DNA from: a virus
Virus record (IMG/VR): IMGVR_UViG_3300009130_000011
Span: 38,755-102,754 of that record
Reading direction: 5' to 3' (one strand)
DNA: 64,000 nucleotides
How positions within the stretch are numbered: the stretch's first letter is position 1; every line of letters starts with the position of its first letter. Below are positions 32,600-53,922 of this stretch, in pieces. The notes under the pieces are model-generated. The model was not told the DNA's origin and did not search any database. It worked only from the letters and a program-made list of their open reading frames with translations. The position numbers were made by a program, and so were the translations under genes.

Positions 32600-33832
32600 T
32601 TACTTGCTCGGAATCTCCATCAAGCGGAGATCGTCTATAATTTTTTTGTTAAGGTCTGATTCTTTGGCTGAAGGATCAGAAATTAAACTATATATTAACC
32701 CACCAATAAAAGCAAGTGCAAAAATGCCTACAACCACCCACGCTATATTGTTTTTCCAAAAGGAAGGCTTTCGTGGTGAAGGAGGGGGTTTTACAGGCGA
32801 GGGTTTTGGCTTTAAAGGCGGAGGCGAAGGAGGCTCGGGCTTTGGCTCGGGCTTTGGCTCGGGCTTTGGCTCGGGCTTTGGCTCGGGCTTTGGCTCGGGC
32901 TTTGGCTCGGGCTTTGACTCTCCTTCTGTGATCATTTTTTTAACATCTATAACTCCGTAACCCCAATCATTGTCTCTACCTATAGTGCCTTTATCATTGG
33001 TATATTTTAGCAAATGCTCTTTAACTTGAGCTACTGTTTTGCAATCGTTTTTCCCTGTTTCTTTTTCTTGCTTTCTATGTTTGGAGATCATTAGAGCAAT
33101 AACTCCAGCGATAAAGGGGCAAGCCATTGAGGTTCCACTAAGCGATGCATAAGAATTATTCAAAAAAGTGCTAGATATATTAGAGCCGGGCGCTGCCCAG
33201 TCTACTTCTGGACCACGGGAGGAAAAAGAGGATACTCTTCCATATTTGTCATAGGCTGCAACAGCTATAGTAGATTCAAAGGCTGCTGGATAATTTACCC
33301 CGCCAGACCCAGAATTACCAGCCGCGCAAACGACAGGAATGTGCATATCATTGGTTAATTGTTTTATAATTTTTTCCATTTTTGGAGATGGAGTTGAGCC
33401 GCCAAGAGACATAGATATAATATCTGGCTTGAGTCGTTTTGCAGCCTGAAGCGCATTGACTAAACCTTCATAGCTACCTGAACCACTTTTGCTTAAAGCT
33501 TTTATACATATACATTTAGCTTTAGGCGCTACACCTACATAACCTTTTTTATTGTTCTTTGCGCAGATTATTCCTACGCAATGAGTTTGGTGTCCGTTAT
33601 AGTCAAAAATGTCTTCTCCTTGTATGAAATTTTCGCCTTCTATTGCGTTATCTCCTATGTCTTCGTGATCAGGCATGCCTGTATCTATCACGACAATAGT
33701 TACTCCTTCTCCTTGAGTTACTTTCCAAGTGTCTGGAATATTCTGATATTTCAAACTCCAGTCAAGAGATTGAGAAAGCGAAGTGAAGACCTCTTCGACT
33801 TTAAAGTCTGGGAGGAAGGTTTTCTTTTTCAT
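32600..33832 (-). CDS. Membrane-anchored subtilisin-like serine protease
   Basis: A 410-residue S8 peptidase. The triad is clear: Asp in VTIVVIDTGMPDHED (about 50), His in YNGHQTHCVGI (about 84), Ser in LSGTSMACPF (about 233), with oxyanion Asn in CAAGNSG. There is no N-terminal signal peptide or propeptide. After the catalytic domain come seven PEPK repeats, a Pro/Lys-rich linker and a C-terminal transmembrane helix (WVVVGIFALAFIGGLIYSLI), so the enzyme is predicted to face the cytoplasm on the inner membrane. Phage-borne subtilases with this layout are unusual. Substrate unknown. Confidence 0.92.
   Translation of the reverse strand: MKKKTFLPDFKVEEVFTSLSQSLDWSLKYQNIPDTWKVTQGEGVTIVVIDTGMPDHEDIGDNAIEGENFIQGEDIFDYNGHQTHCVGIICAKNNKKGYVGVAPKAKCICIKALSKSGSGSYEGLVNALQAAKRLKPDIISMSLGGSTPSPKMEKIIKQLTNDMHIPVVCAAGNSGSGGVNYPAAFESTIAVAAYDKYGRVSSFSSRGPEVDWAAPGSNISSTFLNNSYASLSGTSMACPFIAGVIALMISKHRKQEKETGKNDCKTVAQVKEHLLKYTNDKGTIGRDNDWGYGVIDVKKMITEGESKPEPKPEPKPEPKPEPKPEPKPEPKPEPPSPPPLKPKPSPVKPPPSPRKPSFWKNNIAWVVVGIFALAFIGGLIYSLISDPSAKESDLNKKIIDDLRLMEIPSK
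32832..32915. repeat. 12-base tandem repeat, seven units
   Basis: Seven consecutive ggctcgggcttt units (minus strand encodes Lys-Pro-Glu-Pro repeats) forming the linker between subtilase and membrane helix. The near-perfect copies suggest recent expansion. Confidence 0.9.
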
Positions 33833-34156: not shown

Positions 34157-35671
34157 CTAGTAATTCTTGGATTCTATAATCTCTTTACAGCTTACATTGT
34201 TCATCTCCATAGACTTATGAAAATCTTTTTCCATGGCTTTTGATAGATTAAGCTCCTCTTCTTCAAGGCTGGTATTGTATCCAGCATAATGAATTAAGAA
34301 ATCTCCATTTTTGTAAGCTTTGTCTCCTTTGTGGGCTATATTTTTAGGGTAACTGTTGATTAGGGACTGGTCAACTATCTTTACATGTTTTTTAAAATCA
34401 GTCTCATGAATCATATAAGATAAAGCGGGTTGGTCTTGATATCCTACATATTTATATTGACCTCCAAGTAGGTCTCGCCACCTGTTTAGATAGTAGTACA
34501 TTATTTGACTCCCTCCTTTAATTAAAACATTGCCACTGTTTATTCCATTGCGATCTTTTGTGATTAACATAAGTTTCTCTTCTGTAAATTCTTTCGCTAA
34601 CTCTTCAAGGTTAAAATCAAAATTCATAATACAAACATCTGCGTCGCTCAAAAAAAGAAGATTATATTTATGATAGTTTTCTATCAAGCAATCTACTTTA
34701 ACCCAGCCGGGGCGCTTATTTGGGTCTTGAATTTTTTCGTATTCTTTTTTTCTGGGGATGATTAATTCGTATTTATTTCTTTTGCAATAAATGTTTTTAG
34801 ATATCATGCCAAGCCTAACTTGACTGTCGTAGGCATCTCCAATGATGGGGGTTATTATGCCAGTTTTTTGGAAGTATTTGGACATTGAAATATCAAATTT
34901 GTTAAAACTAACTTTTCCCATGCGCCTGTGCGCTGGACCGCCCATTTTGATAGGATCTCCTCTATAATGGTGGTACCTTGCAACTTCAAAAGGTACCGCA
35001 ATGCTCTCTACGCATTCGCCCCCTATACTGTGTACATCGCAAATGTCATTACCGTCTCTAAATTTGATGCCCTTAATCATAGATTTAAATTGAGTCAAAT
35101 GATCGTAGCCCCAGTCGAATATTTTTCTAACCGATTTTTCTTTAACCCTTTTATTGAAGACTCTCTGAGGAAATTCTAATCTTAAGCTGTGGTTAGAATC
35201 TGGCTGATCTGATAAAAAACTTTTTATATTCTTATGTTTATTTAAAAATAAAAATTCATCTACATCCATGAATAGCCACCAATCCGAATAGTTATTTTCC
35301 GCGCAATTTTTGTAACCAGTAATTTGTGATTCTGGATATGCAGTAGAATGATCTTTGCCATATATCCAAGATTTTAAAAAAACTTTGCCTTTGTACTCTT
35401 CGAGTATTTTATTAAGTTGTTTTAGCGCTTCTTCAGAAGTAAGTTCTAAACAATATTCTGCGTCTGGTTTTTTTGCCCACTTAATATTTTTTTCTTGCCT
35501 TGATAATTCTCTAGCTCCAGCCTGTAGATATTCATCGCTATCAGAGGGAGCGTCGCCGTTATTGTAGATATAGATTTTATCTACCCCAAGACTTAGGTGA
35601 TGCTCAATCCATTCTTCGATGAATGGAAGCTCCATCCTTGGGATTAGCAGCGTATAGAGGGAAACATTCAC
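34157..35671 (-). CDS. Two-domain glycosyltransferase (GT92-like plus GT34-like)
   Basis: A 504-residue protein with two sugar-transferase domains. The N-terminal half begins MNVSLYTLLIPRMELPFIEE and has DWWLFMDVDEFLFLNKH (about 130-146, D-x-D) and HYRGDP, as in GT92/GT2-type enzymes. The C-terminal half has LLFLSDADVCIMNFDF (D-x-D about 342-344), DRNGINSGNVLIKGGSQIMY and DQPALSYMI, then SLINSYPKNIAHKGDKAYKN, as in the GT34 galactosyl/mannosyltransferase family. The fusion suggests two successive linkages made by one protein. It opens the sulfotransferase island. Confidence 0.82.
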   Translation of the reverse strand: MNVSLYTLLIPRMELPFIEEWIEHHLSLGVDKIYIYNNGDAPSDSDEYLQAGARELSRQEKNIKWAKKPDAEYCLELTSEEALKQLNKILEEYKGKVFLKSWIYGKDHSTAYPESQITGYKNCAENNYSDWWLFMDVDEFLFLNKHKNIKSFLSDQPDSNHSLRLEFPQRVFNKRVKEKSVRKIFDWGYDHLTQFKSMIKGIKFRDGNDICDVHSIGGECVESIAVPFEVARYHHYRGDPIKMGGPAHRRMGKVSFNKFDISMSKYFQKTGIITPIIGDAYDSQVRLGMISKNIYCKRNKYELIIPRKKEYEKIQDPNKRPGWVKVDCLIENYHKYNLLFLSDADVCIMNFDFNLEELAKEFTEEKLMLITKDRNGINSGNVLIKGGSQIMYYYLNRWRDLLGGQYKYVGYQDQPALSYMIHETDFKKHVKIVDQSLINSYPKNIAHKGDKAYKNGDFLIHYAGYNTSLEEEELNLSKAMEKDFHKSMEMNNVSCKEIIESKNY

Positions 35672-35675
35672 GCTA

Positions 35676-36497
35676 TTAAAGGGTTTTTATACTAAAGGCT
35701 TTTTTCACCCAAAATCCGCATTCATTTTTTGTCGAAAGGTCAATGTCTAAGGCGCGTGCGCTTCCTGAGTGCTGTTCATCGTGAGTGCAGTTATATACCG
35801 CAGCACGAAAGGGAATACTCTCGCCTTTGTAGCCTTTTTTACTAAAATATTGAAATGATTTTTGGTGTGCTCCAATAATATTATATAAATAGAACTTTGT
35901 TGTTGAGTTTATTATATCTTCCTGAGAGCAATTTAAATTAATCTCGTTAAAATTTATTTCTTTTTTTAGTATATTTAGTTTTGTTATATTAGAAGTTCCG
36001 CATGTCGCCGAAAAATTATTCATATCGGATAATTTATTTTGCTTCAAAAGCTTGTAGCCTTTTTTAACTTTTAAAAAATCTTTTTTAGAATTGTTGACAT
36101 ATCTTGCAAGTTTTTTATGAATAAAATCATCCGCGTCGACAAACATAACATAATGATTTTCTTTGTTTGCTTTTTGAATTTGACTTAAAGCAAGTGCGTA
36201 CTTCGTTCCTCTGTCCTTCTTGATTTGACTCATGCCTACACCGGGCTCGACTTGACGATGGCATTGCCAAGAATCAGTAGGCGCAGGCGGCGCCCAGTTT
36301 ACTTCAAGGAATCTTACATTTTTAATTTTTGGATGATTAGAAAAGTCATTTAATGTTTTGTTAGATACAACGATGACATTGAAATTTTTATCTGTTTGGT
36401 TGCAAACAGAAACAAGGGTGTTTTCCAAAAGTTTCCATGTTGTGTCATATGAATGACAATTTTTGTAATGTTTGACGGATATAATAAAAGTTATCAT
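35676..36497 (-). CDS. GT2-like glycosyltransferase
   Basis: A 273-residue protein with MITFIISVKHYKNCHSYDTT as nucleotide-sugar-binding start, VIVVSNKTLNDFSNHPKIKN, and HYVMFVDADDFIHKKLARYV with DADD as the catalytic aspartates. The C-terminal part (CTHDEQHSGSARALDIDLST) is uncommon. Part of the sulfotransferase island; four bases after the GT92/GT34 gene. Substrate unknown. Confidence 0.8.
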   Translation of the reverse strand: MITFIISVKHYKNCHSYDTTWKLLENTLVSVCNQTDKNFNVIVVSNKTLNDFSNHPKIKNVRFLEVNWAPPAPTDSWQCHRQVEPGVGMSQIKKDRGTKYALALSQIQKANKENHYVMFVDADDFIHKKLARYVNNSKKDFLKVKKGYKLLKQNKLSDMNNFSATCGTSNITKLNILKKEINFNEINLNCSQEDIINSTTKFYLYNIIGAHQKSFQYFSKKGYKGESIPFRAAVYNCTHDEQHSGSARALDIDLSTKNECGFWVKKAFSIKTL

Positions 36498-36500
36498 TTG

Positions 36501-37082
36501 TTATTCTCCAAATTTGTAACTGAAATACTCGATATCTTTTGCGTATTTTTCAGCAACGATTTGACGAGTTTCGTCATCATAATATTCAGTATAGTGTTTA
36601 TGTTTTGATTTGTTTTCATGAGGAAGTTTTTGGTATGGTATTCCGATTTTGTCGCAGATGGTGTTGAAGTCTTCTTGGAGGTTTTCAAATCTTCCGATGA
36701 AATCAACCAAGCAATTCCCACCATCATCTAAAATCCAAGGTAATTGTATGGGGTTAAACTTAACTGCAATACCTTTTTTATTTATATATCCACTTTCAGG
36801 ACACGATTGAAATGCTAAAATAAACTCACGAAATGTTAAGTTATATTTTCCATTTTTATTTCTTTGTATATAAAAATATTGAGATACCATTTTATCCCAC
36901 GGGTTTCTTACAAAAGTAAACTTAAAATAGTTGTTCCATTTTTTATTGTCTACTTCTTTTTTGTAATTTTTTGCAAATTTATGAATTCTCCCTTCTTGGC
37001 TTCCATGGAAAAATTTTACAATAGACGAACCACCCGTTTTAATGATGTGAATAAATATACATTTATGTTTATGACTTATCAT
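36501..37082 (-). CDS. PAPS-dependent sulfotransferase, copy A
   Basis: A 193-residue Sulfotransfer_2-type protein. The 5'-phosphosulfate-binding loop is IHIIKTGGSSIVKF (about residues 10-23) and the 3'-phosphate site is FTFVRNPWDKMVSQYFYIQR (about 55-74). It ends FENLQEDFNTICDKIGIPYQ, KHKHYTEYYDDETRQIVAEK and FGE. These last 60 residues are almost identical in copies B and C, so the three arose by duplication. The family moves sulfate from PAPS to carbohydrate hydroxyls. Shorter than eukaryotic members. No PAPS-making gene is in the window. Confidence 0.9.
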   Translation of the reverse strand: MISHKHKCIFIHIIKTGGSSIVKFFHGSQEGRIHKFAKNYKKEVDNKKWNNYFKFTFVRNPWDKMVSQYFYIQRNKNGKYNLTFREFILAFQSCPESGYINKKGIAVKFNPIQLPWILDDGGNCLVDFIGRFENLQEDFNTICDKIGIPYQKLPHENKSKHKHYTEYYDDETRQIVAEKYAKDIEYFSYKFGE

Positions 37083-37085
37083 TTC

Positions 37086-37751
37086 TCATTCTCCAAATTT
37101 GTATCCGAAATACTCGATGTCTTTTGCGTATTTTTCCGCAATGATTGCTCTCGTTTCGTCGTCGTAGTATTCGGTGTAGTGTTTATGTTTGCTTTTGTTT
37201 TTGCGTGGAAGTTTCTGATGAGGTATTCCAATTTTGTCACAGACGATATCAAAGTCTTCTTGAAGGTTTTCAAATCTACCGATGTAGTCGGGTATTTGAG
37301 TTCCATCTTTTCGGAAAAGTTGATTGAATGGATTGAAGTATGGAGCGCAGTGATTTTGAACGGACTTTTTATACTGATCCTCGATGTATTCTTTCTGCTT
37401 TTCATTCGTAAATTCAGACTCCCATAGACGTAATAATTCTATCTGCGAAATATCTTCAGGGTCTACATCAAGCGCGAATCTTGTAAATTTTGAAAAGCTA
37501 ATATTTTTAACCCACCTCGGCTTCCTCCAACTGTTAAACATTGAATAACTTGAAACTATCCTGTCCCAAGGATTTCTTACGAATGAAAACTTGAAAAAGT
37601 CTGCATATTTATCATCACTAGAAAAACCACCATCGATAACTCTATTTACGCTATCTATTTTCACGCCAAATTTCGCCACCACATTTCCGACGCTACTTCC
37701 TGCGCATTTTGCCGTGTGAATAAAAATACATTTTTCTTTTTTATTTTTCAT
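37086..37751 (-). CDS. PAPS-dependent sulfotransferase, copy B
   Basis: A 221-residue paralog with MKNKKEKCIFIHTAKCAGSS as the 5'-phosphosulfate loop, SFVRNPWDRIVSSYSMF as the 3'-phosphate site, and the conserved C-terminal block KHKHYTEYYDDETRAIIAEK. Central part (FTRFALDVDPEDISQIELLR) differs from copy A, consistent with a different acceptor. Three bases separate it from copy A. Confidence 0.9.
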   Translation of the reverse strand: MKNKKEKCIFIHTAKCAGSSVGNVVAKFGVKIDSVNRVIDGGFSSDDKYADFFKFSFVRNPWDRIVSSYSMFNSWRKPRWVKNISFSKFTRFALDVDPEDISQIELLRLWESEFTNEKQKEYIEDQYKKSVQNHCAPYFNPFNQLFRKDGTQIPDYIGRFENLQEDFDIVCDKIGIPHQKLPRKNKSKHKHYTEYYDDETRAIIAEKYAKDIEYFGYKFGE

Positions 37752-37754
37752 TTG

Positions 37755-38345
37755 TTATTCTCCAAATTTGTAACCGAAACACTCAATGTCTTTTGCATAT
37801 TTGTGAGCGATAAAATTGCGAGTTTCATCGTCGTAGCATTCGGTATAATGTTGATGCTTGCTGCTGTTTTCGCGAGAGAGTCTTTGGCGCGCAACTCCAA
37901 TTTTGTCACAAACAGTATCGAAATCTTCTTGAAGGTTCTCCGTTTTGCCTACGAAATCCATTTGATTTTTTCCGTCAATTTCTATGTAGTCAAACATGGG
38001 TTGAAAATGCATATATTCAAAAAAAGGAGCTTCAAAAACAAATTGTTCAAAAGAATTGTAGCTTTCGATTTTTTGTTTTAAAGAAAGATCTTGCTTATTG
38101 CCGAAACCCCCGGCTTTTAAGTAAGAATATGCGCTTAAAAACCTATCCCACGGGTTTCTGACAAATGTAAATTTAAAATACTTTGGCTTGCGAGCAATAT
38201 CCCCTTCTATACTGTCAACGTATTTTGCGTCTTTAATTTTACTATGGTCTCCGGGGAATCTAGGAATGCCCAGACACGGCTTAATAGAATTGCCTGCGCA
38301 TTTGGGAATATGAATAAAAATAAATTTGTTTTTATGGTGAATCAT
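37755..38345 (-). CDS. PAPS-dependent sulfotransferase, copy C
   Basis: A 196-residue paralog: MIHHKNKFIFIHIPKCAGNS as the 5' loop, FTFVRNPWDRFLSAYSYLKA as the 3' site, and the shared end SKHQHYTECYDDETRNFIAH. Overlaps the pyrophosphatase gene by 14 bases. Likely the same glycan pathway with a different acceptor. Confidence 0.9.
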   Translation of the reverse strand: MIHHKNKFIFIHIPKCAGNSIKPCLGIPRFPGDHSKIKDAKYVDSIEGDIARKPKYFKFTFVRNPWDRFLSAYSYLKAGGFGNKQDLSLKQKIESYNSFEQFVFEAPFFEYMHFQPMFDYIEIDGKNQMDFVGKTENLQEDFDTVCDKIGVARQRLSRENSSKHQHYTECYDDETRNFIAHKYAKDIECFGYKFGE

Positions 38346-38841
38346 TTTTAATACTTTCGTTTATAATTTGATATGCCATTTCTTTTTCGTGCCAATCAAA
38401 CACTTCAACCTTTTTCCCATTTAAATCTTTGTAATGCTGAAAGAAATTAGAACAAATTTTTAAGAATAAAGAGTTTACATCTTCTAGGCATGTATATTTG
38501 TTTACATGACAGGTGGGCGTAGCTAAAATTTTATAATCTTTCATACCATCGTCTTCCATGTCGAGCGCACCTATAGGAGTACACTCTACGAGAGTACCCC
38601 TGTCTATTGGGGAGTGATTGTATACCAAAACATCTAATGCATCTCCGTCTCCTCCAAGCGTATTTGGTATAAACCCGTAACTGCAAGGATACATAAAAGC
38701 AGAGGTTAAGCTTCTGTCATAAAAGAAAACTCCTAACTCGTTGTCGTATTCATACTTTGCGTTAGTGCCTTTAGGTATTTCTATAATACAGTTAATGATT
38801 TTTGGGGATTCTTTATGAATCGGTAAATTATATAAATTCAT
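38332..38841 (-). CDS. ppa: Inorganic pyrophosphatase (family I)
   Basis: A 169-residue soluble pyrophosphatase. Signature parts: INCIIEIPKGTNAKYEYD (substrate Lys), YPCSYGFIPNTLGGDGDALD with the metal-binding DGDALDVLV, and DDGMKDYKILATPTCHVNKY. All main acidic ligands appear present. The enzyme hydrolyses PPi, driving reactions that make nucleotide sugars or PAPS. Its position between sulfotransferase copies supports a role in supplying activated sulfate or sugars, though a host-like role in nucleic-acid synthesis is equally valid. Confidence 0.93.
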   Translation of the reverse strand: MNLYNLPIHKESPKIINCIIEIPKGTNAKYEYDNELGVFFYDRSLTSAFMYPCSYGFIPNTLGGDGDALDVLVYNHSPIDRGTLVECTPIGALDMEDDGMKDYKILATPTCHVNKYTCLEDVNSLFLKICSNFFQHYKDLNGKKVEVFDWHEKEMAYQIINESIKNDSP

Positions 38842-38847
38842 TTTGTT

Positions 38848-39642
38848 TTAGATTATTTTGTTATGCCACAGCCCTATACCCCTGAAGAATGACTCAAGGT
38901 GATAAGGGGTGTCGTATAGTTTCAAAGTTTTAAATCCAGAATAAGGAGGGATTGGGTGAGATATAAAGCATTCTGAAATATTTTGATTGTGTCTGTTGAT
39001 AACTTTTTGCTTTAAAAGCCTAACGCTCAGATCCCCGCAAATAAAATCTTCTGCTTCTTGTATAGAGCGCTCATCTTTAACGACATGAATTAAAGTTTCT
39101 TGCTCGTCAAGGAGTCTAAAATTGAATGCAATTTGATCATCAAAAGCTCCTGACTTATGAAGTTTTGGGCGTTCCAGTATAGATTTAAAAAGTTTTATAG
39201 TTTTTTCGTTTGATCGTACACAAATCCAGCCCATGCATATTGAGCAGTGAAATTTTTTAAAAAATCTAGTATAATTTGGCATATTGCCCACAGATGCTAT
39301 TACATCATAACCTTCAATTATATAGTCTTTAGGATTTTTAAGCCAAACTGCGTCTAAATCTGAGTGAATAATATTTTTTCCTGAATCAATTAATCTTAAA
39401 AGCTCCTTAAAGCGCGCTCCCCAATCAGCTTTAAATCCATCAGAAAAAATTTCTTTTTTAAGAATTTTAGTTTTTATATTATGATCGATTAGGTAATCAT
39501 TTATTTCGTCATCCATACAAATAACTGAATAGTTTTCAATTCCGAGGTCTTCTAAATGAAGCGCCCAATTTAAGGCGATGCGTTTAAAGCGCCCGTCCCC
39601 AAAGCCAACTATCTCAAAATCATCTATCAAATTAGAACTCAT
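38848..39642 (-). CDS. GT77-type nucleotide-sugar transferase
   Basis: A 264-residue protein with GFGDGRFKRIALNWALHLED, SGKNIIHSDLDAVWLKNPKD (D-x-D about residues 94-96), HCSICMGWICVRSNEKTIKL and SGAFDDQIAFNFRLLDEQET: the Nucleotid_trans (PF03407) block order. Such proteins add sugars such as galactose or xylose. It lies in the sulfotransferase island, so it likely builds the acceptor chain. Confidence 0.82.
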   Translation of the reverse strand: MSSNLIDDFEIVGFGDGRFKRIALNWALHLEDLGIENYSVICMDDEINDYLIDHNIKTKILKKEIFSDGFKADWGARFKELLRLIDSGKNIIHSDLDAVWLKNPKDYIIEGYDVIASVGNMPNYTRFFKKFHCSICMGWICVRSNEKTIKLFKSILERPKLHKSGAFDDQIAFNFRLLDEQETLIHVVKDERSIQEAEDFICGDLSVRLLKQKVINRHNQNISECFISHPIPPYSGFKTLKLYDTPYHLESFFRGIGLWHNKII

Positions 39643-40249
39643 ATTTTAAATGCTCTATATCTTTAGAGTAGTAATCTTGAACTATTGCCCGAGTCTCATC
39701 TGTATAGTGTTCTCTATAATCTTTGTGGTCGCTAGAATTTTTGTTGGGAATTTTAGAATAAGGGATGCCTATTTTTGAGCAGAGAAGCTCCCAGTCTGAG
39801 TTAAAACTCTCAATTTTTCCAATGAAATCAATGTGCTTCAGGTCTTTTTCTAGAATTAAATCTCCAACTATCTTACGAAAATGAATGTAATTGCATCCAC
39901 GCAGTTGATCTTTTACAAAATCAGTAAACTTTGTATCTGGAAGATTGTTATCTTTACAAAATTTTGAATCCATCTTATTGCCCCCTCCAGACTTTAGGTA
40001 AAAAAAAGCGCTAACCAGTCTATCAAAAGGGTTTCTGACAAAAGTAAATATTTTGTAGGAATCTTTGTTTATGTAAATTTCTTGCCCGCACGGCCTAATT
40101 AGATAGTAGTCATCCATTATGACTCTAAGCCTAGGGTGGCCCAACCCCATTTTTTCTTCGTCTCTATATGGCTCAAGAACTGAGCGCAAGGAAGTTCCTG
40201 CGCATTTTGGTAAATGAAGGAAGGCAAATTTTTTTGAGTGGCTAATCAT
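39632..40249 (-). CDS. PAPS-dependent sulfotransferase, copy D
   Basis: A 205-residue sulfotransferase: KKFAFLHLPKCAGTSLRSVL as the 5' loop and IFTFVRNPFDRLVSAFFYLK as the 3' site. C-terminal block DETRAIVQDYYSKDIEHLKY aligns with copies A-C but is clearly more divergent at DNA level. Overlaps the GT77 gene by 11 bases. Confidence 0.9.
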   Translation of the reverse strand: MISHSKKFAFLHLPKCAGTSLRSVLEPYRDEEKMGLGHPRLRVIMDDYYLIRPCGQEIYINKDSYKIFTFVRNPFDRLVSAFFYLKSGGGNKMDSKFCKDNNLPDTKFTDFVKDQLRGCNYIHFRKIVGDLILEKDLKHIDFIGKIESFNSDWELLCSKIGIPYSKIPNKNSSDHKDYREHYTDETRAIVQDYYSKDIEHLKYEF

Positions 40250-40250
40250 A

Positions 40251-40922
40251 TTAAAAAGAATATTTTAAAAAATCTATATCACATTCATATATTTTTTCTA
40301 CAAGCCTTTTGTCAGAAAGAGAATATATGTCTCTATAAAATGTGTCGTGGCTCTTGTTTGAATGAGGGAGTTTGCTAGATGGCGTGCCTATCATGTTGCA
40401 AACAAAATCAAAATCTTCTTGAAAACTGTCTAGCCTACCTACAAAATCAACCAAAAGATTTGGACCTTCAAAAATAAAATCACATTGAGGTTGAAATTGA
40501 ACATGATCCGGCGATGATATTATCGCATTAAGGTAATCTGTAAAGCCAAACTCGCCATTATCTGGAAGACTCATCCATTCGCATAAGTCAGGCCTGTGAT
40601 TTTTTGTATAAAAAAATTGAGATACTGCTCGCTGATATGGATTTCTAGCAAAACAAAATTTAAAATAAGAATCAAAAATATCTTTTTCTATAGCTTTTTT
40701 TATAGTTTTTGCAGGCAGATGTTGCATCCCGCCGGTAATGCCATATTGATTTCTGAAGCCGAGTCCCGATAGGCAATACTCTGGATTTTTACCCTCGCCA
40801 ATACCCATCCAAAAATTTTCGGTAATGCGATCTTCTTCTGGGAATAAAAGATCTTCAATGCTAGTGCCTCCACATTTTGGGATGTGGATAAAAATAGAAT
40901 TGTATTTATTTAGCAGGGGCAT
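40251..40922 (-). CDS. PAPS-dependent sulfotransferase, copy E
   Basis: A 223-residue, most divergent member: NSIFIHIPKCGGTSIEDLLF as the 5' loop and FKFCFARNPYQRAVSQFFYT as the 3' site. The middle has PDHVQFQPQCDFIFEGPN and the end SNKSHDTFYRDIYSLSDKRL. First gene of the island in transcription order after the 159-residue gene. Starts two bases after copy D ends. Confidence 0.88.
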   Translation of the reverse strand: MPLLNKYNSIFIHIPKCGGTSIEDLLFPEEDRITENFWMGIGEGKNPEYCLSGLGFRNQYGITGGMQHLPAKTIKKAIEKDIFDSYFKFCFARNPYQRAVSQFFYTKNHRPDLCEWMSLPDNGEFGFTDYLNAIISSPDHVQFQPQCDFIFEGPNLLVDFVGRLDSFQEDFDFVCNMIGTPSSKLPHSNKSHDTFYRDIYSLSDKRLVEKIYECDIDFLKYSF

Positions 40923-40923
40923 T

Positions 40924-41403
40924 TTAGAATAAGTCTTCTAGATCTTCTAAACTAATGGACTCCCCAGCCTCATCTGAGAGATCGTCCAATGACTTTCTAA
41001 AATTTGCTATCGAGCTTTCACTAAACCCGTAAAAGGTTATTTCCCAAAGCAAATGAGCAAGCGCTTCTGCGTCACAAATTTGCGCTTTCTTATTAACTTC
41101 GACATCTATAAGGTCTTCCCAGAGTACCAAATCTATTGCGAAAGTATCTTTACTTTCTTGTAGGCAAACATCAATAAAGCTCTCACTTAGGTCGTCTTCT
41201 GGGTCGCTTGGAAACTCTCTAATTAAAATTTTATAATCTTTTTTTAAATTTAAATCTTTTTTAAGAAGGTTATTCCATACGTCAAGGTATGCTACATCAA
41301 ATTTTTCAACCTCGCTTGAATCTCTATCCTTATAGTAGATTTTATAGAGAAAATTAAAAACATTTTTGTATACATTTGAATTGATTAGCTCTCGTAGTGT
41401 CAT
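40924..41403 (-). CDS. Unknown acidic protein (159 aa)
   Basis: A 159-residue acidic protein, MTLRELINSNVYKNVFNFLY..., with KIYYKDRDSSEVEKFDVAYL and a helical acidic end (LDDLSDEAGESISLEDLEDL). It begins the operon leading into the sulfotransferase island, two bases before copy E. No family recognised; it could be a helper of the pathway or unrelated. Confidence 0.7.
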   Translation of the reverse strand: MTLRELINSNVYKNVFNFLYKIYYKDRDSSEVEKFDVAYLDVWNNLLKKDLNLKKDYKILIREFPSDPEDDLSESFIDVCLQESKDTFAIDLVLWEDLIDVEVNKKAQICDAEALAHLLWEITFYGFSESSIANFRKSLDDLSDEAGESISLEDLEDLF

Positions 41404-45917: not shown

Positions 45918-46703
45918 TTATGAAGCAAAGTAATCAACTCTATTAATTTGATTTGTTGACCATAGAGATCTGTGCTCTGGGTCTGCATCTGTTATGCAAA
46001 GAAAATCTGGGTGGTGGTCTTGGTAAAAATTAGCAAAGATAACATTTAAATCTAGTCTACCGCTGCAATAGTGTGTCATTATCGCTCCATCTGGATTGCA
46101 GACTCTGATTAGCTCTTTATGAACTTCTGGATCATTAAATTTAAAAGCTCCTTTATCTGTTAGGTCTCCTATAATTATATCGAAAGAATTATCTTTGCAG
46201 GTTTTAATTAACTCAAAGCCGTCACCATATGTTATGTTAACATTTGGGTTATTCAAAGCTTTATTAGTAAAAGAAATGTATTCTGAAAGAATTGTAACTA
46301 ACTGATGGTCTAATTCAAAGCATTCAACCCCTGTGGCTCCATTATCTAAAAGCAGCGACGCTAATCCTAAGTCTCCTCCCCCAATTATTAATATTCTATC
46401 TAAGGGGATATCTCTTTCAAGCATTTTTAAGGCGCTTAAATAAATCGAATGGGTTTCATCTCCATAACATTCTTCTTCTTCGTTTTGAGAAACTCCCAGT
46501 TGGTATTCGTCATCTATAAAAACACGTAGATCTCCCATTGGAGACCTGTAAAGACTGAGCTTTTGGCCTGATGCAGTATTAGCATTAAGTATCAGCTTGT
46601 CATTATTTACGCAGTTTAATTGCAAAGGCATGCTTACCGAACGGCCTGTTTGCGTTTCCTCATTGAATCTCCAATGAGTAAAAAATGATGAAGGAGTATT
46701 CAT
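45918..46703 (-). CDS. speE: Spermidine synthase-like aminopropyltransferase
   Basis: A 261-residue polyamine synthase. SPMGDLRVFIDDEYQLGVSQ and NEEEECYGDETHSIYLSALK match the N-terminal and the Gly-rich catalytic loop; ILIIGGGDLGLASLLLDN (G-G-G-D) is the SAM-type site, CFELDHQLVTILSEYISFTN the E-L-D motif, and DIIIGDLTDKGAF the substrate Asp region. It transfers an aminopropyl group from decarboxylated SAM to putrescine, making spermidine, or a related diamine. Directly downstream of speD in the same operon, which strongly supports the pathway. Confidence 0.9.
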   Translation of the reverse strand: MNTPSSFFTHWRFNEETQTGRSVSMPLQLNCVNNDKLILNANTASGQKLSLYRSPMGDLRVFIDDEYQLGVSQNEEEECYGDETHSIYLSALKMLERDIPLDRILIIGGGDLGLASLLLDNGATGVECFELDHQLVTILSEYISFTNKALNNPNVNITYGDGFELIKTCKDNSFDIIIGDLTDKGAFKFNDPEVHKELIRVCNPDGAIMTHYCSGRLDLNVIFANFYQDHHPDFLCITDADPEHRSLWSTNQINRVDYFAS

Positions 46704-47117
46704 TTAAAATGAAGGGATCTTTTTTATATTTTTCCCAATTTTTCTGCGGAAGGTTTCTATTGTTACTGACACTTGGTGCTGGCCTTCTTCTACAAAACGA
46801 CCTAAAATGAGACTGGACAACAATCTTTGGTTTACTTTCGAGCAAGTGAATAGATCAAAAAACATAACTTTTTTCTCTGGCCAAGTATGAAAGCTTAAAT
46901 GAGACTCTGCAAGCAAAGCAAGAAGGGTAAACCCATAAGGGTCAAAGCTATGAGATTGGCACTTTAGAAGATTTAAGCTTAAGGCGCTGCATATGTCTTG
47001 ACAGAGAAGGGTATAGAATTCGTCTTTATCTTTTAACTTTTCCTCTTCTACATTGCAAACACATCCAAGGACATGAGTTTGACTATTCAAGTCAAGAACT
47101 TTAGTATCTATAGACAA
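46704..47117 (-). CDS. speD: S-adenosylmethionine decarboxylase proenzyme
   Basis: A 137-residue pyruvoyl enzyme. TLLALLAESHLSFHTWPEKK then VMFFDLFTCSKVN is the SpeD core: Glu-Ser cleavage site giving the pyruvoyl Ser, catalytic His, and Cys in the FDLFTC motif. N-terminal VLGCVCNVEEEKL matches the family's start. It makes decarboxylated SAM for SpeE, which follows one base later. A second, less canonical homolog lies at 31988-32392. Confidence 0.92.
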   Translation of the reverse strand: MSIDTKVLDLNSQTHVLGCVCNVEEEKLKDKDEFYTLLCQDICSALSLNLLKCQSHSFDPYGFTLLALLAESHLSFHTWPEKKVMFFDLFTCSKVNQRLLSSLILGRFVEEGQHQVSVTIETFRRKIGKNIKKIPSF

Positions 47118-47669: not shown

Positions 47670-47698
47670 ATATTAGCACGAGAATGCTCTAGTGTCAA
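47670..47698 (-). promoter_or_regulatory. Sigma-70 type promoter with short leader
   Basis: TTGACA, 17-base spacer, TAATAT, then 18 bases to the ATG at 47651. The -35 lies at the DUF1501 stop. Confidence 0.85.
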
Positions 47699-48966
47699 GA
47701 CAAAATATCAAAAATCGGTGGCTCCCCATTGGAGACTTTAAATGGCCTTCCGCTGGGTGAGTATGTAATCTTCTCTATGCTTAAGCCCATCGCATGTGCA
47801 ATAGTAGCATTTATAGATGGCACATCAACGCCGTTTTCTTCTACATAATGAGCCCTGTCGTCAGATTTGCCATAAACGAATCCTTCTTTTACGCCTCCTC
47901 CTGCGAATAAAACGCTAAATGCGGAGGGGTGGTGATCTCTGCCGACCCTTCCAGCTTTAACTTCTGGAGTTCTTCCAAACTCACTTGCCACAACGACCAT
48001 TGTATCCGAGAGTAGACCTCTCAGGTTTAAATCTTCTAATAAAGAGCTCAAGCCAGCATCTAAAACGGTACCTCTTGTTTCCATGTTTCCAAAAACATCG
48101 TTATGCATGTCCCAGCCGCCATAAGAAACCTCAACAAATCTAACTTTATTTTCCACCAGCCTCCTTGCTAAAAGACAGCCTTGACCAAAATTATCTCTGC
48201 CATATTTATCTCTAAGCGACTCTGGCTCCTTGCTTAGGTCAAAAGCTTCAAGATCTTTGCTTTTCATTAGGCTAATGGCATTGTCATACAAATCTGAGTA
48301 AGCTCTAACTTGTTTTTGCGGAAAAGACTCTGTAAAATTTTTATTTAATACCCGTGAAGCATCTAGACGCTTGTGATATAAATTTTCTTCAACATATCCA
48401 GACTTTTTTACATTCTGTATGCCTGCATTTGGATTGCCTAGCGGTAATGGGCCATGCTTACTTTCAAAATAGCCTGCGCCTATAATCCCGCTACCCCCGT
48501 TGATTTTTACATTGTCAGGAAGGGTTTTGTTCAGCTTATCGCAAAGTTTACTAATCCAGCTCCCCATGCTTGGGTGAATAATTGTGCCCCTTTTTTGGTA
48601 GCTAGTATGAAGCAAATAGTTTGCTTGTTCGTGAGCTCCTTGATTACTATTAACCGACCTAACTAAAGAGGCAAGGTGCATCTGTTGGGCAGTTTTGGGG
48701 AGCCAATTGCCCAGCTGTATCCCGTCTGCTGAAGTATTTATAGCAGTAGTTTCTCCCATTACATCTTTATTTTCAGGCTTAGGATCGAAGGTGTCTAGAT
48801 GGGTCATGCCTCCCCTCATATTTAGAAAAATAACGTGACGAGCGGTTGGCATTTTTGTTGTTTTAGCCATGAGCTCCGAGCCATAAACCAGAGCGCTGAC
48901 GCCAAGATAGCTCCTAGCTATTTCTTTTGCAAATTGCCTGCGAGATAATTCATCTAACATTTTCAT
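47695..48966 (-). CDS. DUF1501 protein with Tat signal
   Basis: A 423-residue DUF1501 protein. The start MKMLDELSRRQFAKEIARSY has a twin-arginine motif SRRQFAK followed by a hydrophobic stretch, so it is probably exported folded. Core blocks: ARHVIFLNMRGGMTHLDTFD, CLLARRLVENKVRFVEVSYG, GWDMHNDVFGNMETRGTVLD, and ASEFGRTPEVKAGRVGRDHH, giving the alkaline-phosphatase-superfamily metal ligands. In Planctomycetota and Verrucomicrobiota, DUF1501 genes sit next to DUF1549/DUF1553 genes, as here, with unknown substrate. Their presence points to the host and to host-gene capture. Confidence 0.92.
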   Translation of the reverse strand: MKMLDELSRRQFAKEIARSYLGVSALVYGSELMAKTTKMPTARHVIFLNMRGGMTHLDTFDPKPENKDVMGETTAINTSADGIQLGNWLPKTAQQMHLASLVRSVNSNQGAHEQANYLLHTSYQKRGTIIHPSMGSWISKLCDKLNKTLPDNVKINGGSGIIGAGYFESKHGPLPLGNPNAGIQNVKKSGYVEENLYHKRLDASRVLNKNFTESFPQKQVRAYSDLYDNAISLMKSKDLEAFDLSKEPESLRDKYGRDNFGQGCLLARRLVENKVRFVEVSYGGWDMHNDVFGNMETRGTVLDAGLSSLLEDLNLRGLLSDTMVVVASEFGRTPEVKAGRVGRDHHPSAFSVLFAGGGVKEGFVYGKSDDRAHYVEENGVDVPSINATIAHAMGLSIEKITYSPSGRPFKVSNGEPPIFDILS

Positions 48967-48977
48967 GGTATAACTTT

Positions 48978-51005
48978 CTATTTAATAAATATAAATTCGT
49001 GTGCATTTAAAAGAATCCAAGAGACGTGTTTAAATCCATCCTTTTCATCGACATATTGTTTTAGTAATGTCGATTCGTTCGACATAGGTTTTCTTGAAAG
49101 AATTGAGAGAAAAGCATTTTCCACTTGTTTTTGTTTACTTTTTTCTGATTGCATTTGAACTATAAAGTCGGCATCTTTTTTATTTAAGATATTGGATTCG
49201 ACAAACCCGTTTAGCAAATTTAAAACTTGCGTAGTATTAGGCTCTGCGTTGCTGTTGTCTATCTGTTCTTTATCGCTGCCTCCAAACTGTCTAATTAAAT
49301 GGCCTCCCGGAGCAGGATAAGGTAGGTAGCTACTACGCACCAAGCTTCTGTCTTTGAACTTTTTATTATTAGCTTCGTAAGTGCTTAAAATCGCTAGGAG
49401 ATTCCTGTTCCCAGCATTTTCTTCTGCAAGTTGTTTGAAGTCTGCATAAATTTCTTCTCCTGTCATGTCTTTATATCGATCATAAATTACTGAATAGTCT
49501 TGCTGGTTGTATAAATAAACCCTGCCTGCGGAGTCTATGTCATTATAAACTAAAGTAACTAAAGAATCCCACAACTGCTCTCCAGTCATTCTTCTCAGGA
49601 TTGGGCCTTCGAAATTATATTCTTCAAGGCTTTTGTAGTCTTGTTTTTTTGCAGACCTTTGAAATAGTTTGGTATTTAAAAGAATTCTTTCGTATTCCCT
49701 TAAATCGTAATTCACTGAAACTAATAGACGCTCTAGATATTTCATTAGCTTTTGATTGCTTGCTACCGTATCGTCCATCATAGTGTCTATCGGTTCTATT
49801 AGCCCTGCGCCAAAAATTCTTTTCCAGATTCTGTTTGCAATCATGGTGGTGAATCTGGGGTTATCTTTGCTTGTTAACCAATCTGCAAAAACTTTTCTAC
49901 TACTACCTTGTGTGGTTTCTGTAGGTTTTGGAGTGAAAATTGCCTTGGCGAAAACAGTATCGCCCGGCTTGCCATCGTCCTCCGCAAAATCTCTAGGAAG
50001 TTTTATTGTGCCTGTTCCATTGTTTTCAATCCCTGATTGAATAGAATCTCTCACTACATTTCTCCAATTGTTAAAGAGGCCTGCGTTTGCATCCCCATCC
50101 GCATTAATTGCTCGGCTAAGTTCGCCTATTGATTTGCCTTGATTTCTAAGTCTAACGTTTCCAATGCCCGAAGTGAATGCAGTCATTTCGTAGAATTGGC
50201 GCTGGCTCCACTTGTCAAATGGGTGATTATGACACATCGCGCATTCAAGCCTAGTCCCCAAAAAGATTCTTATTGTATGTGAGAGATTATCTTCCTGCAT
50301 GCCTCGATCTCGCAGGTAATAACTTATAGCTTCTCCTCCATCCAGAAGCCTTCCGCTGCTTCCAATTAACTCCCTAACCATTTGATCGTAAGGTTTTTTA
50401 GATTCAATTGAATCTCTGAGCCATTTCCTGTATACCGAACCTACGTTAATGTTGGTTCCGTTGATTCTATCTTTCACCCTAAGCATGTCGCTCCACCAAT
50501 TCATTTGGTGATTTGTATATCCAGATGAATTTAATAGCTTTTGTATCAATTTATCTTTTTTAGAAGAGTCTCTATCGTTAACAAAAGAAAGTAATTCGTC
50601 TTGTGTTGGTATCCTTCCTGCGACCGTAAGATAAAGCCTTCTTGCATAAGCATAATCATCTAAAGGCTTAGTTTTATATAAGCGTTTGCTCCTTAAATTT
50701 TGCTCAATAAGCTCATCGATATATGCTGCATAGCCATTTAAGGTTCTTTGGTCTAGGGGTATTTTTGAGGGTGGGATGCTGCTGTATCTATTTTCCGAGT
50801 GATAAAGTTCAATTTGTTTTTGACTATCAATCGTAAGCGCTTCTATTTTAAATCTAAATTGCTGTAAATCTTTATCCCTAGCAATTCTAACATGAGTTTC
50901 ATTTGCATCCAATATTTTCGCCTCAAGAGAGTTGCCATCCTTGAAATAAAGGGTGGAGCCAAAACAAAAAGTAGTGGTAAGGAAGAAAAATAATAAAGCC
51001 TTCAT
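48978..51005 (-). CDS. DUF1549/DUF1553 protein
   Basis: A 675-residue secreted protein with signal peptide MKALLFFFLTTTFCFGSTLY. It has an SH3-like N-terminal part (FKDGNSLEAKILDANETHVR), then DUF1549: YARRLYLTVAGRIPTQDELL, WWSDMLRVKDRING, and RLECAMCHNHPFDKWSQRQF with a CxxCH c-type haem motif. DUF1553 follows: NPRFTTMIANRIWKRIFGAG, GPILRRMTGEQLWDSLVTLV and RKPMSNESTLLKQYVDE. The usual DUF1549 proteins are larger (about 800-1000 aa) with an extra cytochrome domain; this one is compact. Pairs with DUF1501 downstream. Function is unproven, possibly redox or carbohydrate related. Confidence 0.92.
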   Translation of the reverse strand: MKALLFFFLTTTFCFGSTLYFKDGNSLEAKILDANETHVRIARDKDLQQFRFKIEALTIDSQKQIELYHSENRYSSIPPSKIPLDQRTLNGYAAYIDELIEQNLRSKRLYKTKPLDDYAYARRLYLTVAGRIPTQDELLSFVNDRDSSKKDKLIQKLLNSSGYTNHQMNWWSDMLRVKDRINGTNINVGSVYRKWLRDSIESKKPYDQMVRELIGSSGRLLDGGEAISYYLRDRGMQEDNLSHTIRIFLGTRLECAMCHNHPFDKWSQRQFYEMTAFTSGIGNVRLRNQGKSIGELSRAINADGDANAGLFNNWRNVVRDSIQSGIENNGTGTIKLPRDFAEDDGKPGDTVFAKAIFTPKPTETTQGSSRKVFADWLTSKDNPRFTTMIANRIWKRIFGAGLIEPIDTMMDDTVASNQKLMKYLERLLVSVNYDLREYERILLNTKLFQRSAKKQDYKSLEEYNFEGPILRRMTGEQLWDSLVTLVYNDIDSAGRVYLYNQQDYSVIYDRYKDMTGEEIYADFKQLAEENAGNRNLLAILSTYEANNKKFKDRSLVRSSYLPYPAPGGHLIRQFGGSDKEQIDNSNAEPNTTQVLNLLNGFVESNILNKKDADFIVQMQSEKSKQKQVENAFLSILSRKPMSNESTLLKQYVDEKDGFKHVSWILLNAHEFIFIK

Positions 51006-51030: not shown

Positions 51031-51428
51031 TGGTGGAGGTGGCGGGAGTTGAACCCGCGTCCTAATCGCTTTCAAGCAATCACTTCTACAAGCTTAGTTA
51101 GTTTCTTTTTGAGTTGTTGATACTAACATCGAACTTCCTGTTTCAATTATTTGCAGTTTATTAACAGGTAAACCTTTTCTGTTTTGCAGATCAATGACCC
51201 CTTATCCCTTTTATCTGCGTCAAAAGGTAAGAGGTTAGCAGGTTAAGCTGCTAAGGCGAGCTTACGGCTCTTGAAACCGAAACGCTTCGCAGCGATGCGG
51301 TTCTTGAAACCGAGAGCTCTAACACGGTTTTTAGCGCCATGTAAAGCTTTGCACATTGATAACGAAGCCAAGTGCATCTCCGGCTTGCGGTGAAAGAATC
51401 CAACGCTAGTCGAATCCAGAACACCCCC
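51031..51428 (-). ncRNA. ssrA: tmRNA with a long basic tag
   Basis: The 5' end GGGGGTGTTCTGGATTCGAC and the 3' end GCGGGTTCAACTCCCGCC... followed by ACCTCCACCA match tmRNA; the acceptor GGGGGTG pairs CACCTCC with one G-U. The tag reading frame is at 51246-51335 and begins AKNRVRAL, contains the near-repeat GFKNR/GFKSR, and ends KLALAA before TAA. At about 30 residues with ten Lys/Arg and no acidic residue it is much longer and more basic than typical tags (about 10 residues in E. coli). CCA is encoded. tmRNA rescues stalled ribosomes and tags the peptide for proteolysis. Confidence 0.95.
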
Positions 51429-51444: not shown

Positions 51445-51472
51445 ACTATAGTTTATACACTAAAATTTGTAA
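51445..51472 (-). promoter_or_regulatory. Possible tmRNA promoter
   Basis: TTACAA, 16-base spacer, TATAGT, 16 bases before the tmRNA 5' end (leader removed by RNase P). Weaker than others. Confidence 0.5.
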
Positions 51473-51701
51473 TTCTGAGCCTTATTTGCTCAAGATTTCC
51501 ACTCCTTACAAGAGTTCCGCTTAGGAATATGCAATCTTTGCCAAAAATACTATGCGGCTTTGCTATAACCCCTAGTACGCTCCCTTCTTTACTCTTAAAC
51601 TCAAGCATGTCTTGCTCAAGGCTGAGAATTGACGAGCCTTCGTAGAAATCTCCAATCATATCCTCACAATCACAGTCTAAAACTTCCGCACTGCAATTCA
51701 T
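51453..51701 (-). CDS. Small unknown protein (82 aa)
   Basis: MNCSAEVLDCDCEDMIGDFY... then beta-type LVRSGNLEQIRLRITNFSV. Cys at residues 3, 10 and 12. The 3' end overlaps the possible tmRNA promoter. No family recognised. Confidence 0.65.
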   Translation of the reverse strand: MNCSAEVLDCDCEDMIGDFYEGSSILSLEQDMLEFKSKEGSVLGVIAKPHSIFGKDCIFLSGTLVRSGNLEQIRLRITNFSV

Positions 51702-52250: not shown

Positions 52251-52889
52251 CTAAAAAACCTTAAAGGAATCTCTTCCTAGAAAATCTTCAGCTAAATCAA
52301 TAAGTAAAAAATATAAATAATGAAAATCTTTACTCAAGTATTCTGGAGACATGCAAACAAATACTTCTGCAAAACTTTTTTCTTTTAATTTGGCGTCAGA
52401 AATTGTGTTGTAAAAATAAATCGATCTTTCTTGCTCTACCCTGCCATCTTTTAATACGTTAGAGTTGAATTTTCCGTAAGATAAAGATTGTGACTGCAAG
52501 GAAAGTAAATCTTGTTGAGGGAGAAGTTCAGAACTTCTATTTTTAATCCAATGGTATTCATTTAAAAGTCCAGATCTCATTGTCCATCCCACCCAATTGC
52601 TTTCGCATACTACCCCATCTTCGAAGCCAACCATATCTTCTGGTTCGTAGTAAATGTCGTGGTGGTCATCTATATTATATATATTAACTAAAGAGCGACC
52701 GCTTATACATGATAGTATATCGGAATGAGTTTGAGAAAAGGAAATATTTGGCAGATCTTTATGTGTCGAGCCGTATTGCTTGGAAATAATACCTGTAAAG
52801 AGCCTTATGATATCCCTCAGGCTGCGCTCGTCTTTGCAAAAATCGACATCTATAGATAGGATATTGAAATCCTCTGTATCATTGGTCAT
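52251..52889 (-). CDS. Unknown protein with Asp/His-rich motifs (212 aa)
   Basis: A 212-residue protein with NILSIDVDFCKDERSLRDII (about 8-27) and VNIYNIDDHHDIYYEPEDMV (about 67-86). The pair DxD and DDHHD is reminiscent of arginase-fold metal sites such as UPF0489-type proteins, but the rest is too different to assign. Overlaps the UvsE copy by 11 bases, so the two are translated together. Function unknown. Confidence 0.72.
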   Translation of the reverse strand: MTNDTEDFNILSIDVDFCKDERSLRDIIRLFTGIISKQYGSTHKDLPNISFSQTHSDILSCISGRSLVNIYNIDDHHDIYYEPEDMVGFEDGVVCESNWVGWTMRSGLLNEYHWIKNRSSELLPQQDLLSLQSQSLSYGKFNSNVLKDGRVEQERSIYFYNTISDAKLKEKSFAEVFVCMSPEYLSKDFHYLYFLLIDLAEDFLGRDSFKVF

Positions 52890-53922
52890 AGATTGCGTTA
52901 TAGCGTTCCCTAGTTAGCCTTCTAAGCTCTTCTTCTGTTAGCTTTTCTTCTGGCTCTGGCTCTAGCATTTTTGCAATTGCGAGATCGCCTTTTCTTACGT
53001 CACATTCCCATTTAATTTGATAATCAAACGTAGGTATTGGAGTAGAAAGATAGTCTGCGTGCTTTGCAGTCCCTGCTACCCCTTCGCTCCAGCGAAATAA
53101 AGGAATTACTCCTCCCCACGTCTCATGAAAAGCCCCTATGTTAACTTCTTGATCTAAGGCTTTATCTATAAGCTCAGAGGGGTTGCATTTATCATGAAGG
53201 TTGTCATAAACCAATGCAAAGCCGTGTCCATGTTCTTCCAAGCAATAAACGTGAAAATATTTAAATAATCTATAGCAGTTCCAAGTTCCTTGATCGTCGC
53301 AATCAAGGGCAATCCTGCGTTGAGCGCCTTTATCTAATTTTTTAAATGAAGAATAAAATCTATCTACAAATTGTATGAAGTCATCATGATAATACTCGCC
53401 TTTATCGTTTACGCCAACCTGTTCGCCAATCTCAATACATATCGGCGAAGATAAATTTTGTTGACAGCCGAGAGTATCCAGAAACCAAGCATGAAAATTA
53501 AACTCTTTAATGGTTTTTTCAGATATTTCTTCAGCTTCGCTAGCCAAGGAGTTAAATCCATCTGGATGAATTGATAATGATATCCCCACGCTCTTGGCGC
53601 CTTTGCCAATATCTTTAATCTTATCAACTATAGAGTTATAGGAAGGTAAATCTCCTAGCGAAATATTTACAGTCGGGTCGGAAACTAGCGAAAAAATTGA
53701 ATTGCTGAGCCTGTAGTTTACGATGCCTAACTCTGCGCAATGAGAAATAATTTTTTTTGTGAGTGATAAATTATGATTTATAACACTTTCGAGCTTTGCA
53801 AGCGCCTCCGCATCGCCTCCTTCGCTTCCTAGCTCGTCAAACTCTCGACGAGTCATGCCTTGAAAAACATTAGAGGAGTCTTCTTCTAGAAGAATTTCGC
53901 TAGTTCCTATTAGTCCGTACAT
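52879..53922 (-). CDS. uvsE: UV damage endonuclease, copy 2
   Basis: A 347-residue UVDE-type protein, quite different from the copy at 9030. Matching blocks: NYRLSNSIFSLVSDP (about 67-81), ISLSIHPDGFNSLASE (about 113-128), RRIALDCDDQGTWN, LVYDNLHDKCNPSELIDK (about 238-255) and KWECDVRKGDLAIAKM. The E of the usual LTIENEDKG block is changed to LDCDDQG, so metal binding may differ. It has a 30-residue C-terminal acidic tail. It would nick at UV photoproducts or another lesion. Confidence 0.9.
   Translation of the reverse strand: MYGLIGTSEILLEEDSSNVFQGMTRREFDELGSEGGDAEALAKLESVINHNLSLTKKIISHCAELGIVNYRLSNSIFSLVSDPTVNISLGDLPSYNSIVDKIKDIGKGAKSVGISLSIHPDGFNSLASEAEEISEKTIKEFNFHAWFLDTLGCQQNLSSPICIEIGEQVGVNDKGEYYHDDFIQFVDRFYSSFKKLDKGAQRRIALDCDDQGTWNCYRLFKYFHVYCLEEHGHGFALVYDNLHDKCNPSELIDKALDQEVNIGAFHETWGGVIPLFRWSEGVAGTAKHADYLSTPIPTFDYQIKWECDVRKGDLAIAKMLEPEPEEKLTEEELRRLTRERYNAIYDQ

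What the first reader, a model, noticed from the sequence alone, without database searches (positions are those of the whole stretch)
51031..51428. tmRNA with about 30-residue, highly basic tag
The tag frame starts AKNRVRAL, has a repeated GFKNR/GFKSR segment, and ends KLALAA. It has ten basic and no acidic residues, unlike short, mostly neutral or acidic tags such as in E. coli. A repeat-built tag might be recruited to other proteases or bind RNA. Its place beside host-like genes suggests capture from the host.
Basis: seen in the sequence. Interest (0 to 1): 0.75.

Follow-up and report, generated by a model that had tools for sequence, protein, structure and literature searches.

The report
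Phage tmRNA with long charged tag
A large phage, probably of Verrucomicrobiota, carries its own ribosome-rescue RNA whose protein-tagging peptide is three times the usual length and strongly positive, while a very close relative has at the same genomic spot a version with a strongly negative tag, so the tag looks like an exchangeable, selected part rather than a fixed bacterial signal.

Summary
The tmRNA is real: window 51031-51428, minus strand, RF00023 at 135 bits, with G3.U70, T-arm and H5 intact. The tag is GAKNRVRALGFKNRIAAKRFGFKSRKLALAA: 31 aa, ten basic, no acidic residues. The window lies in a virus record with terminase, rIIA and rIIB. Nineteen viral records carry one tmRNA clade (support 100/99, tag excluded). 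Thirteen have basic tags (20-33 aa, +4 to +12), five acidic (34-41 aa, -9 to -11), one a host-like tag. The basic frame is under purifying selection (pN/pS 0.23, reversed in other frames). Between the window and its closest relative (neighbour protein 92% identical) the tag is unrelated, and tmRNA and neighbour trees conflict, so tmRNA alleles move between viruses. Sampled Verrucomicrobiota mostly have 9-10 aa tags; one order has 15-23 aa tags, and two tiny-genome families in it have basic ones (+3 to +8). None has this tmRNA or a tag over 23 aa. Best reading: canonical trans-translation with host SmpB and probably ClpXP (LALAA end kept), plus a charged, repeat-containing extension that tunes delivery. 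RNA binding as a general role is unlikely: sister tags are acidic.

The parts
51031..51428 (-). one-piece tmRNA gene (ssrA), 398 nt, CCA encoded
   Evidence: ARAGORN, Rfam RF00023 135.1 bits
51246..51338 (-). tag reading frame, 31 codons: GAKNRVRALGFKNRIAAKRFGFKSRKLALAA; resume codon GGC at 51336-51338
   Evidence: pN/pS 0.23 across eight 31-aa viral relatives
51243..51245 (-). tag stop codon TAA, in the loop of H5
51297..51311 (-). first repeated segment, GFKNR
   Evidence: short-tag relatives L029, L030 and L044 have one unit fewer
51264..51278 (-). second repeated segment, GFKSR
51246..51260 (-). C-terminal LALAA, ClpXP-type degron end
   Evidence: shared by most viral basic tags and many host tags; degron role is established knowledge, not tested here
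51235..51254 (-). helix H5 around the stop codon (7 bp), compensated in relatives
51339..51428 (-). tmRNA 5' part (acceptor 5' strand, H2 strand, PK1 region)
51031..51242 (-). tmRNA 3' part after the stop codon (most of H5, pseudoknot region, T-arm, acceptor 3' strand with G3.U70)
48978..51005 (-). DUF1549/DUF1553 (PSCyt2/PSD1) protein, 26 nt after the tmRNA 3' end, same strand
   Evidence: Pfam; relatives in 12 other viral records
47695..48966 (-). DUF1501 protein
   Evidence: Pfam, E 4e-107
51445..51473 (-). promoter-like ATTACA-17-TATAGT just upstream; number of such sites in the region is near chance

Best explanation
A working phage-encoded one-piece tmRNA. In the infected cell it is charged with alanine by host AlaRS, loaded by host SmpB onto ribosomes stalled on broken mRNAs, and adds Ala plus the 31-aa tag GAKNRVRALGFKNRIAAKRFGFKSRKLALAA to the nascent chain. 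The LALAA end then sends the product to host ClpXP. Shown: the tmRNA anatomy, selection on the tag frame as protein, its spread through one viral clade, gain or loss of one ~11-codon repeat unit, and replacement by an acidic-tag allele at the same place in a close relative. Inferred: expression, SmpB and ClpXP use, and that the long charged part adapts delivery (fit to a host adaptor or protease, or keeping tagged fragments soluble) rather than binding nucleic acid. Ancestry: probably from Verrucomicrobiota of the order whose tags are already 15-23 aa, then lengthened and made basic in the virus.
For: RF00023 full-length match at 135 bits. Acceptor stem with G3.U70, T-stem, encoded CCA and a stop-codon hairpin in all viral members, H5 weak only in L033 and its pairs compensated between members. 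Tag frame pS 0.41 vs pN 0.095, reversed in frames +1 and +2. Nineteen-record viral clade, 100/99, on a tree built without the tag. C-terminus LALAA in most basic tags, EMVA or EMAA in the acidic ones. No SmpB in 15 viral records, SmpB in the two host genomes tested. No ClpP in 14 viral records, ClpP in all 22 host genomes tested. Virus record with terminase, rIIA/rIIB and PhoH. Host order tags 15-23 aa with K-N-x-V/I...F...AA, close to the viral pattern.
Against: No expression, tagging or degradation data. The viral records are fragments, so a viral SmpB or protease elsewhere is not excluded. The placement of the viral clade among hosts is weakly supported (54/91) and the host is not identified. 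The role of the charged part is inference only.
Confidence: 0.65

Rival explanations
1. Tag matching: the viral tag type follows the host. Basic-tag viruses infect hosts whose own tags are long and basic, acidic-tag viruses infect hosts with acidic tags, so the extreme charge is a host trait that the virus copies through recombination or selection for the host's adaptor or protease.
For: Basic 19-23 aa tags occur in two tiny-genome families of the same order (GKKNVIRGLKFGKSKSYAMAA, GIRNRRNRKVMKLSFGNKAKLAA, GKNKKGKLVKGLFGRKARMAA) and moderately acidic 16-18 aa tags in another family (GENNIVSFEPELEALAA). The single-repeat viral tag resembles some host tags above shuffles (z 4.7 to GKKNIIRGLKFGSSESFAMAA).
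Against: On the body tree the viral clade does not group with the basic-tag hosts. The best-scoring host tag for the 20-aa viral tag is not basic (GNSNNVVEFPGASQEFAMAA, z 5.4). No host tag exceeds 23 aa and none has the repeat. The window and G001 are close relatives (92% neighbour protein), likely with similar hosts, yet have opposite tags.
Confidence: 0.25
2. Retargeting: the basic tag sends tagged chains to another place or protease (Lon, a phage adaptor, nucleic acid or membrane) during infection, as the long Mesoplasma florum tag goes to mf-Lon.
For: Length and charge are far from sampled host tags, the sequence is under selection, and there is a precedent for a species-specific tag and Lon protease pair (PMC9097571).
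Against: The LALAA end is kept. Hosts with basic tags have ClpP. Sister tags are acidic, so nucleic-acid binding cannot be a general function. The basic tag is not more amphipathic than shuffles.
Confidence: 0.2
3. No special function: repeat slippage lengthened the tag and drift made it charged; only rescue and the last residues matter.
For: One repeat unit is absent in L029, L030 and L044, so length is tolerated.
Against: pN/pS 0.23 over the whole tag and ten of thirteen records keeping 31-33 aa with nearly the same sequence. Both charge types are extreme and conserved within their clades.
Confidence: 0.1

Closest known systems
one-piece bacterial tmRNA, Rfam RF00023, of Verrucomicrobiota
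   Same: full architecture, G3.U70, H5 with stop codon, G/A resume codon...ALAA end
   Different: tag of 31 aa with net +10 against mostly 9-10 aa and net -3 to +1; at most 23 aa and +8 in two tiny-genome families
phage-encoded tmRNAs: mycobacteriophages Bxz1 and Wildcat, Bacillus phage G (PMC4131195), marine phage Melnitz (PMC9004378)
   Same: complete tmRNA carried by a large phage; Melnitz tmRNA is likewise closer to those of another lineage than its host's
   Different: Melnitz has a two-piece SAR11-like tmRNA; here it is one-piece, in a Verrucomicrobiota-like clade, with alternative tags of opposite charge. Tags of those phages were not compared here
long tag of Mesoplasma florum with mf-Lon (PMC9097571)
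   Same: species-specific tag outside the E. coli pattern
   Different: M. florum tag is read by its Lon; here the LALAA end is kept and candidate hosts have ClpP

Membership tests
one-piece tmRNA (RF00023) | covariance-model match over the full length | tested here: met
   135.1 bits, model 1-374, cut-off 47
one-piece tmRNA (RF00023) | tRNA-like domain: 7-bp acceptor with G3.U70, T-arm, CCA | tested here: met
   7 of 7 acceptor pairs, G3.U70, 5-bp T-stem, CCA
one-piece tmRNA (RF00023) | tag frame with stop codon in helix H5 | tested here: met
   7-bp hairpin around TAA
one-piece tmRNA (RF00023) | resume-codon context | tested here: met
   UUACAU|GGC, matching the host and viral consensus UANNU before a G codon
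one-piece tmRNA (RF00023) | tag translated as protein | tested here: met
   indirect: codon-level selection; no peptide data
one-piece tmRNA (RF00023) | pseudoknots PK1-PK4 | tested here: inconclusive
   region aligned by the model, but several helices show mismatches; pseudoknots not tested apart
one-piece tmRNA (RF00023) | works with SmpB | not testable with these tools
   SmpB absent in viral records, present in two hosts
ClpXP-type SsrA degron | C-terminal ...LAA | tested here: met
   KLALAA
ClpXP-type SsrA degron | degradation by ClpXP | not testable with these tools
   none
two-piece (permuted) tmRNA as in phage Melnitz | permuted gene order | tested here: not met
   continuous one-piece match
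Mollicute-type Lon-directed long tag | hosts without ClpP, tag read by Lon | tested here: not met
   ClpP found in all 22 Verrucomicrobiota genomes tested, including both basic-tag families; true host unknown, Lon recognition not tested

The most novel reading that the evidence does not exclude
In these phages the tmRNA tag is an exchangeable address: viruses swap whole tmRNA alleles whose tags have opposite extreme charge, so that rescue products are steered to different host adaptors, proteases or fates during infection, overriding the host's own short tag.
Probability: 0.2. Interest if true: 0.8.

Novelty: new variant of a known kind. Interest (0 to 1): 0.6.

Why it matters
SsrA tags are usually treated as short, near-constant degrons. 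Here a viral tmRNA clade keeps the RNA body and the C-terminal degron but carries 20-41 aa tags that are either strongly basic or strongly acidic, under purifying selection, and replaced wholesale between close relatives. That makes it testable whether the upstream part of the tag chooses the fate of rescued proteins, and why phages carry tmRNA at all.

Tried and rejected
Inversion of the basic tag as the source of the acidic one: local alignments to the reverse complement are no better than codon shuffles. Tiny-genome hosts as ClpP-free, Lon-dependent cells: all have ClpP. Loss of tmRNA in the family of G014 (only 19 of 42 with a full RF00023 match): a host tmRNA query finds at least a fragment in 31 of 42, several cut at contig ends, so much of it is assembly breaks. 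Amphipathic helix in the basic tag: not above shuffles. Relatives of the tag in solved structures: none. Relatives among INPHARED phages: only 36-76 nt of the 3' end. Pattern GGGGGTGNTCTGGATTCGACTNG gave nothing because it was mis-specified, corrected. Tag as DNA-level chance repeat: rejected by the codon test. Searches that errored.

Full report
Observation. ARAGORN and Rfam RF00023 both give a one-piece tmRNA at 51031-51428, minus strand. The tag is GAKNRVRALGFKNRIAAKRFGFKSRKLALAA: 31 residues, ten basic, none acidic. The acceptor stem with G3.U70, T-stem, CCA and stop-codon hairpin are intact.

Setting. The window is part of a 102,754-base virus record. The rest of the record encodes terminase large subunit, rIIA, rIIB and PhoH, and the window encodes DNA ligase, clamp loader and sigma-factor-like proteins. 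It is a large tailed phage. The nearest cellular relative found for a neighbouring gene is in a Verrucomicrobiota genome (38% identity; that search reaches only close relatives). The tmRNA stands 26 nt before a DUF1549/DUF1553 gene, followed by DUF1501.

Relatives. Scans by the neighbouring protein, by the tag DNA and by the 5' end gave viral records with homologous tmRNAs, read by hand. Thirteen have basic tags. Ten of these are 31-33 aa and +8 to +12. Three are 20-21 aa and +4 to +7, with one repeat unit fewer, at two places in the tree. Five have acidic tags of 34-41 aa and -9 to -11 (for example GEGYDSIEELLEAAREEYDNLVQFEQAEELEMVA). One (L042) has AKNIVSFEDFVHSEELALAA, like host tags. On a tree built without the tag these nineteen form one clade (100/99). 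The acidic ones are one side of a branch (94/97) and lie inside the basic ones (98/91 for both together). Fewer basic-to-acidic changes are needed if basic came first, but inner supports are modest.

Selection. Among eight 31-aa tags the pooled pS is 0.41 and pN 0.095; in the other two frames pN exceeds pS. Pairs are not independent and part of the frame is also RNA structure, but the frame contrast is clear. The tag is read as protein and kept.

Exchange. The window's DUF1549/1553 protein is closest to that of G001 (92%, 100/100), and the flanks of the tmRNA agree at 84-93%. Yet G001 has the acidic tag, and its tmRNA body is about 82% like the window's. The window's tmRNA body is 93% like that of G005, whose neighbouring protein is only 70% identical. 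So tmRNA alleles have been replaced at a conserved place.

Hosts. RF00023 matches in Verrucomicrobiota were read for tags. Most are 9-10 aa and neutral or slightly acidic. In one order many are 15-23 aa. Two families with 0.7-1.0 Mb genomes have basic tags (+3 to +8), among them GIRNRRNRKVMKLSFGNKAKLAA and GKNKKGKLVKGLFGRKARMAA. Of 85 distinct host tags nine have net charge +3 or more, all in these families, and none is longer than 23 aa. A BLAST of the window tmRNA against 387 genomes of the phylum found only its 3' end, at most about 90 nt. The sample is not the whole phylum and the host is not known.

Mechanism. No SmpB in 15 viral records and no ClpP in 14, so host factors are needed unless they lie in missing parts. 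Hosts tested have both. Chlamydia, also of the PVC group, uses ClpX for SsrA-tagged proteins (PMC9601184). With LALAA kept, ClpXP is the likely end point. The charged part is selected, but its role is inferred. Since both signs of charge occur on the same RNA body, a general RNA-binding role is unlikely; a fit to host adaptors or proteases, or keeping fragments soluble, fits both.

Known and new. Phage tmRNAs are known (PMC4131195; PMC9004378), and the most frequent tag length is 10 aa (PMC11915505). I found no report of long, oppositely charged alternative tags in one viral tmRNA clade, within an open-access library only. That bacterial tags in general are rarely this long or basic, apart from Mollicutes, is from my own knowledge and was not tallied here.

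Noticed in passing
window 47695-51005: The DUF1549/DUF1553 gene is followed by DUF1501, types familiar from Planctomycetota and Verrucomicrobiota; the DUF1549/1553 protein recurs in at least 12 other viral records (58-92% identity). The DUF1501 N-terminus (LSRRQFAKEIARSYLGVSAL) looks like a Tat signal by eye.
   Followed up: partly
family of G014, e.g. G480:C12 and G481:C2: Copies of the last 25-28 nt of the host tmRNA lie kilobases apart near the tmRNA, and several contigs end inside it: a busy integration site that also hides the tmRNA from searches.
   Followed up: partly
L015, L017, L020, L021, L027, L032, L033, L034, L036, L044, L125, L190, L191: ARAGORN misses these tmRNAs or calls a wrong or shortened tag, so long and charged tags are probably under-reported in automatic annotation.
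   Followed up: yes
L034, L035, L039: A second, distant viral tmRNA type with tag A(D/N)NVIDMAPSVAEADEILARLGFQEAALVA (30 aa).
   Followed up: no
L040, L049 (L058, L059): tmRNA-like viral sequences at 36 bits, below the RF00023 cut-off, near a tRNA-Lys, with a possible tag GFIGSAKTQPAIAA.
   Followed up: no
L026, L041: tmRNA called as permuted by ARAGORN, tag ANDNVYALAA, probably the two-piece marine alphaproteobacterial type.
   Followed up: no
window 34157-41403: Run of glycosyltransferase-like and several sulfotransferase-like genes (one hits PHROG galactose-3-O-sulfotransferase); the rest judged by eye.
   Followed up: partly
window 32600-33832: Subtilase-like protease (phrog_3677) with a PEPK-repeat linker and a C-terminal hydrophobic segment.
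   Followed up: no
window 45918-47117: Spermidine-synthase-like and AdoMet-decarboxylase-like genes side by side; a second AdoMet-decarboxylase-like protein at 31988-32392 by eye only.
   Followed up: no
window 52879-53922: UvdE-type UV endonuclease; a similar protein at 9030-10028 by eye only.
   Followed up: no
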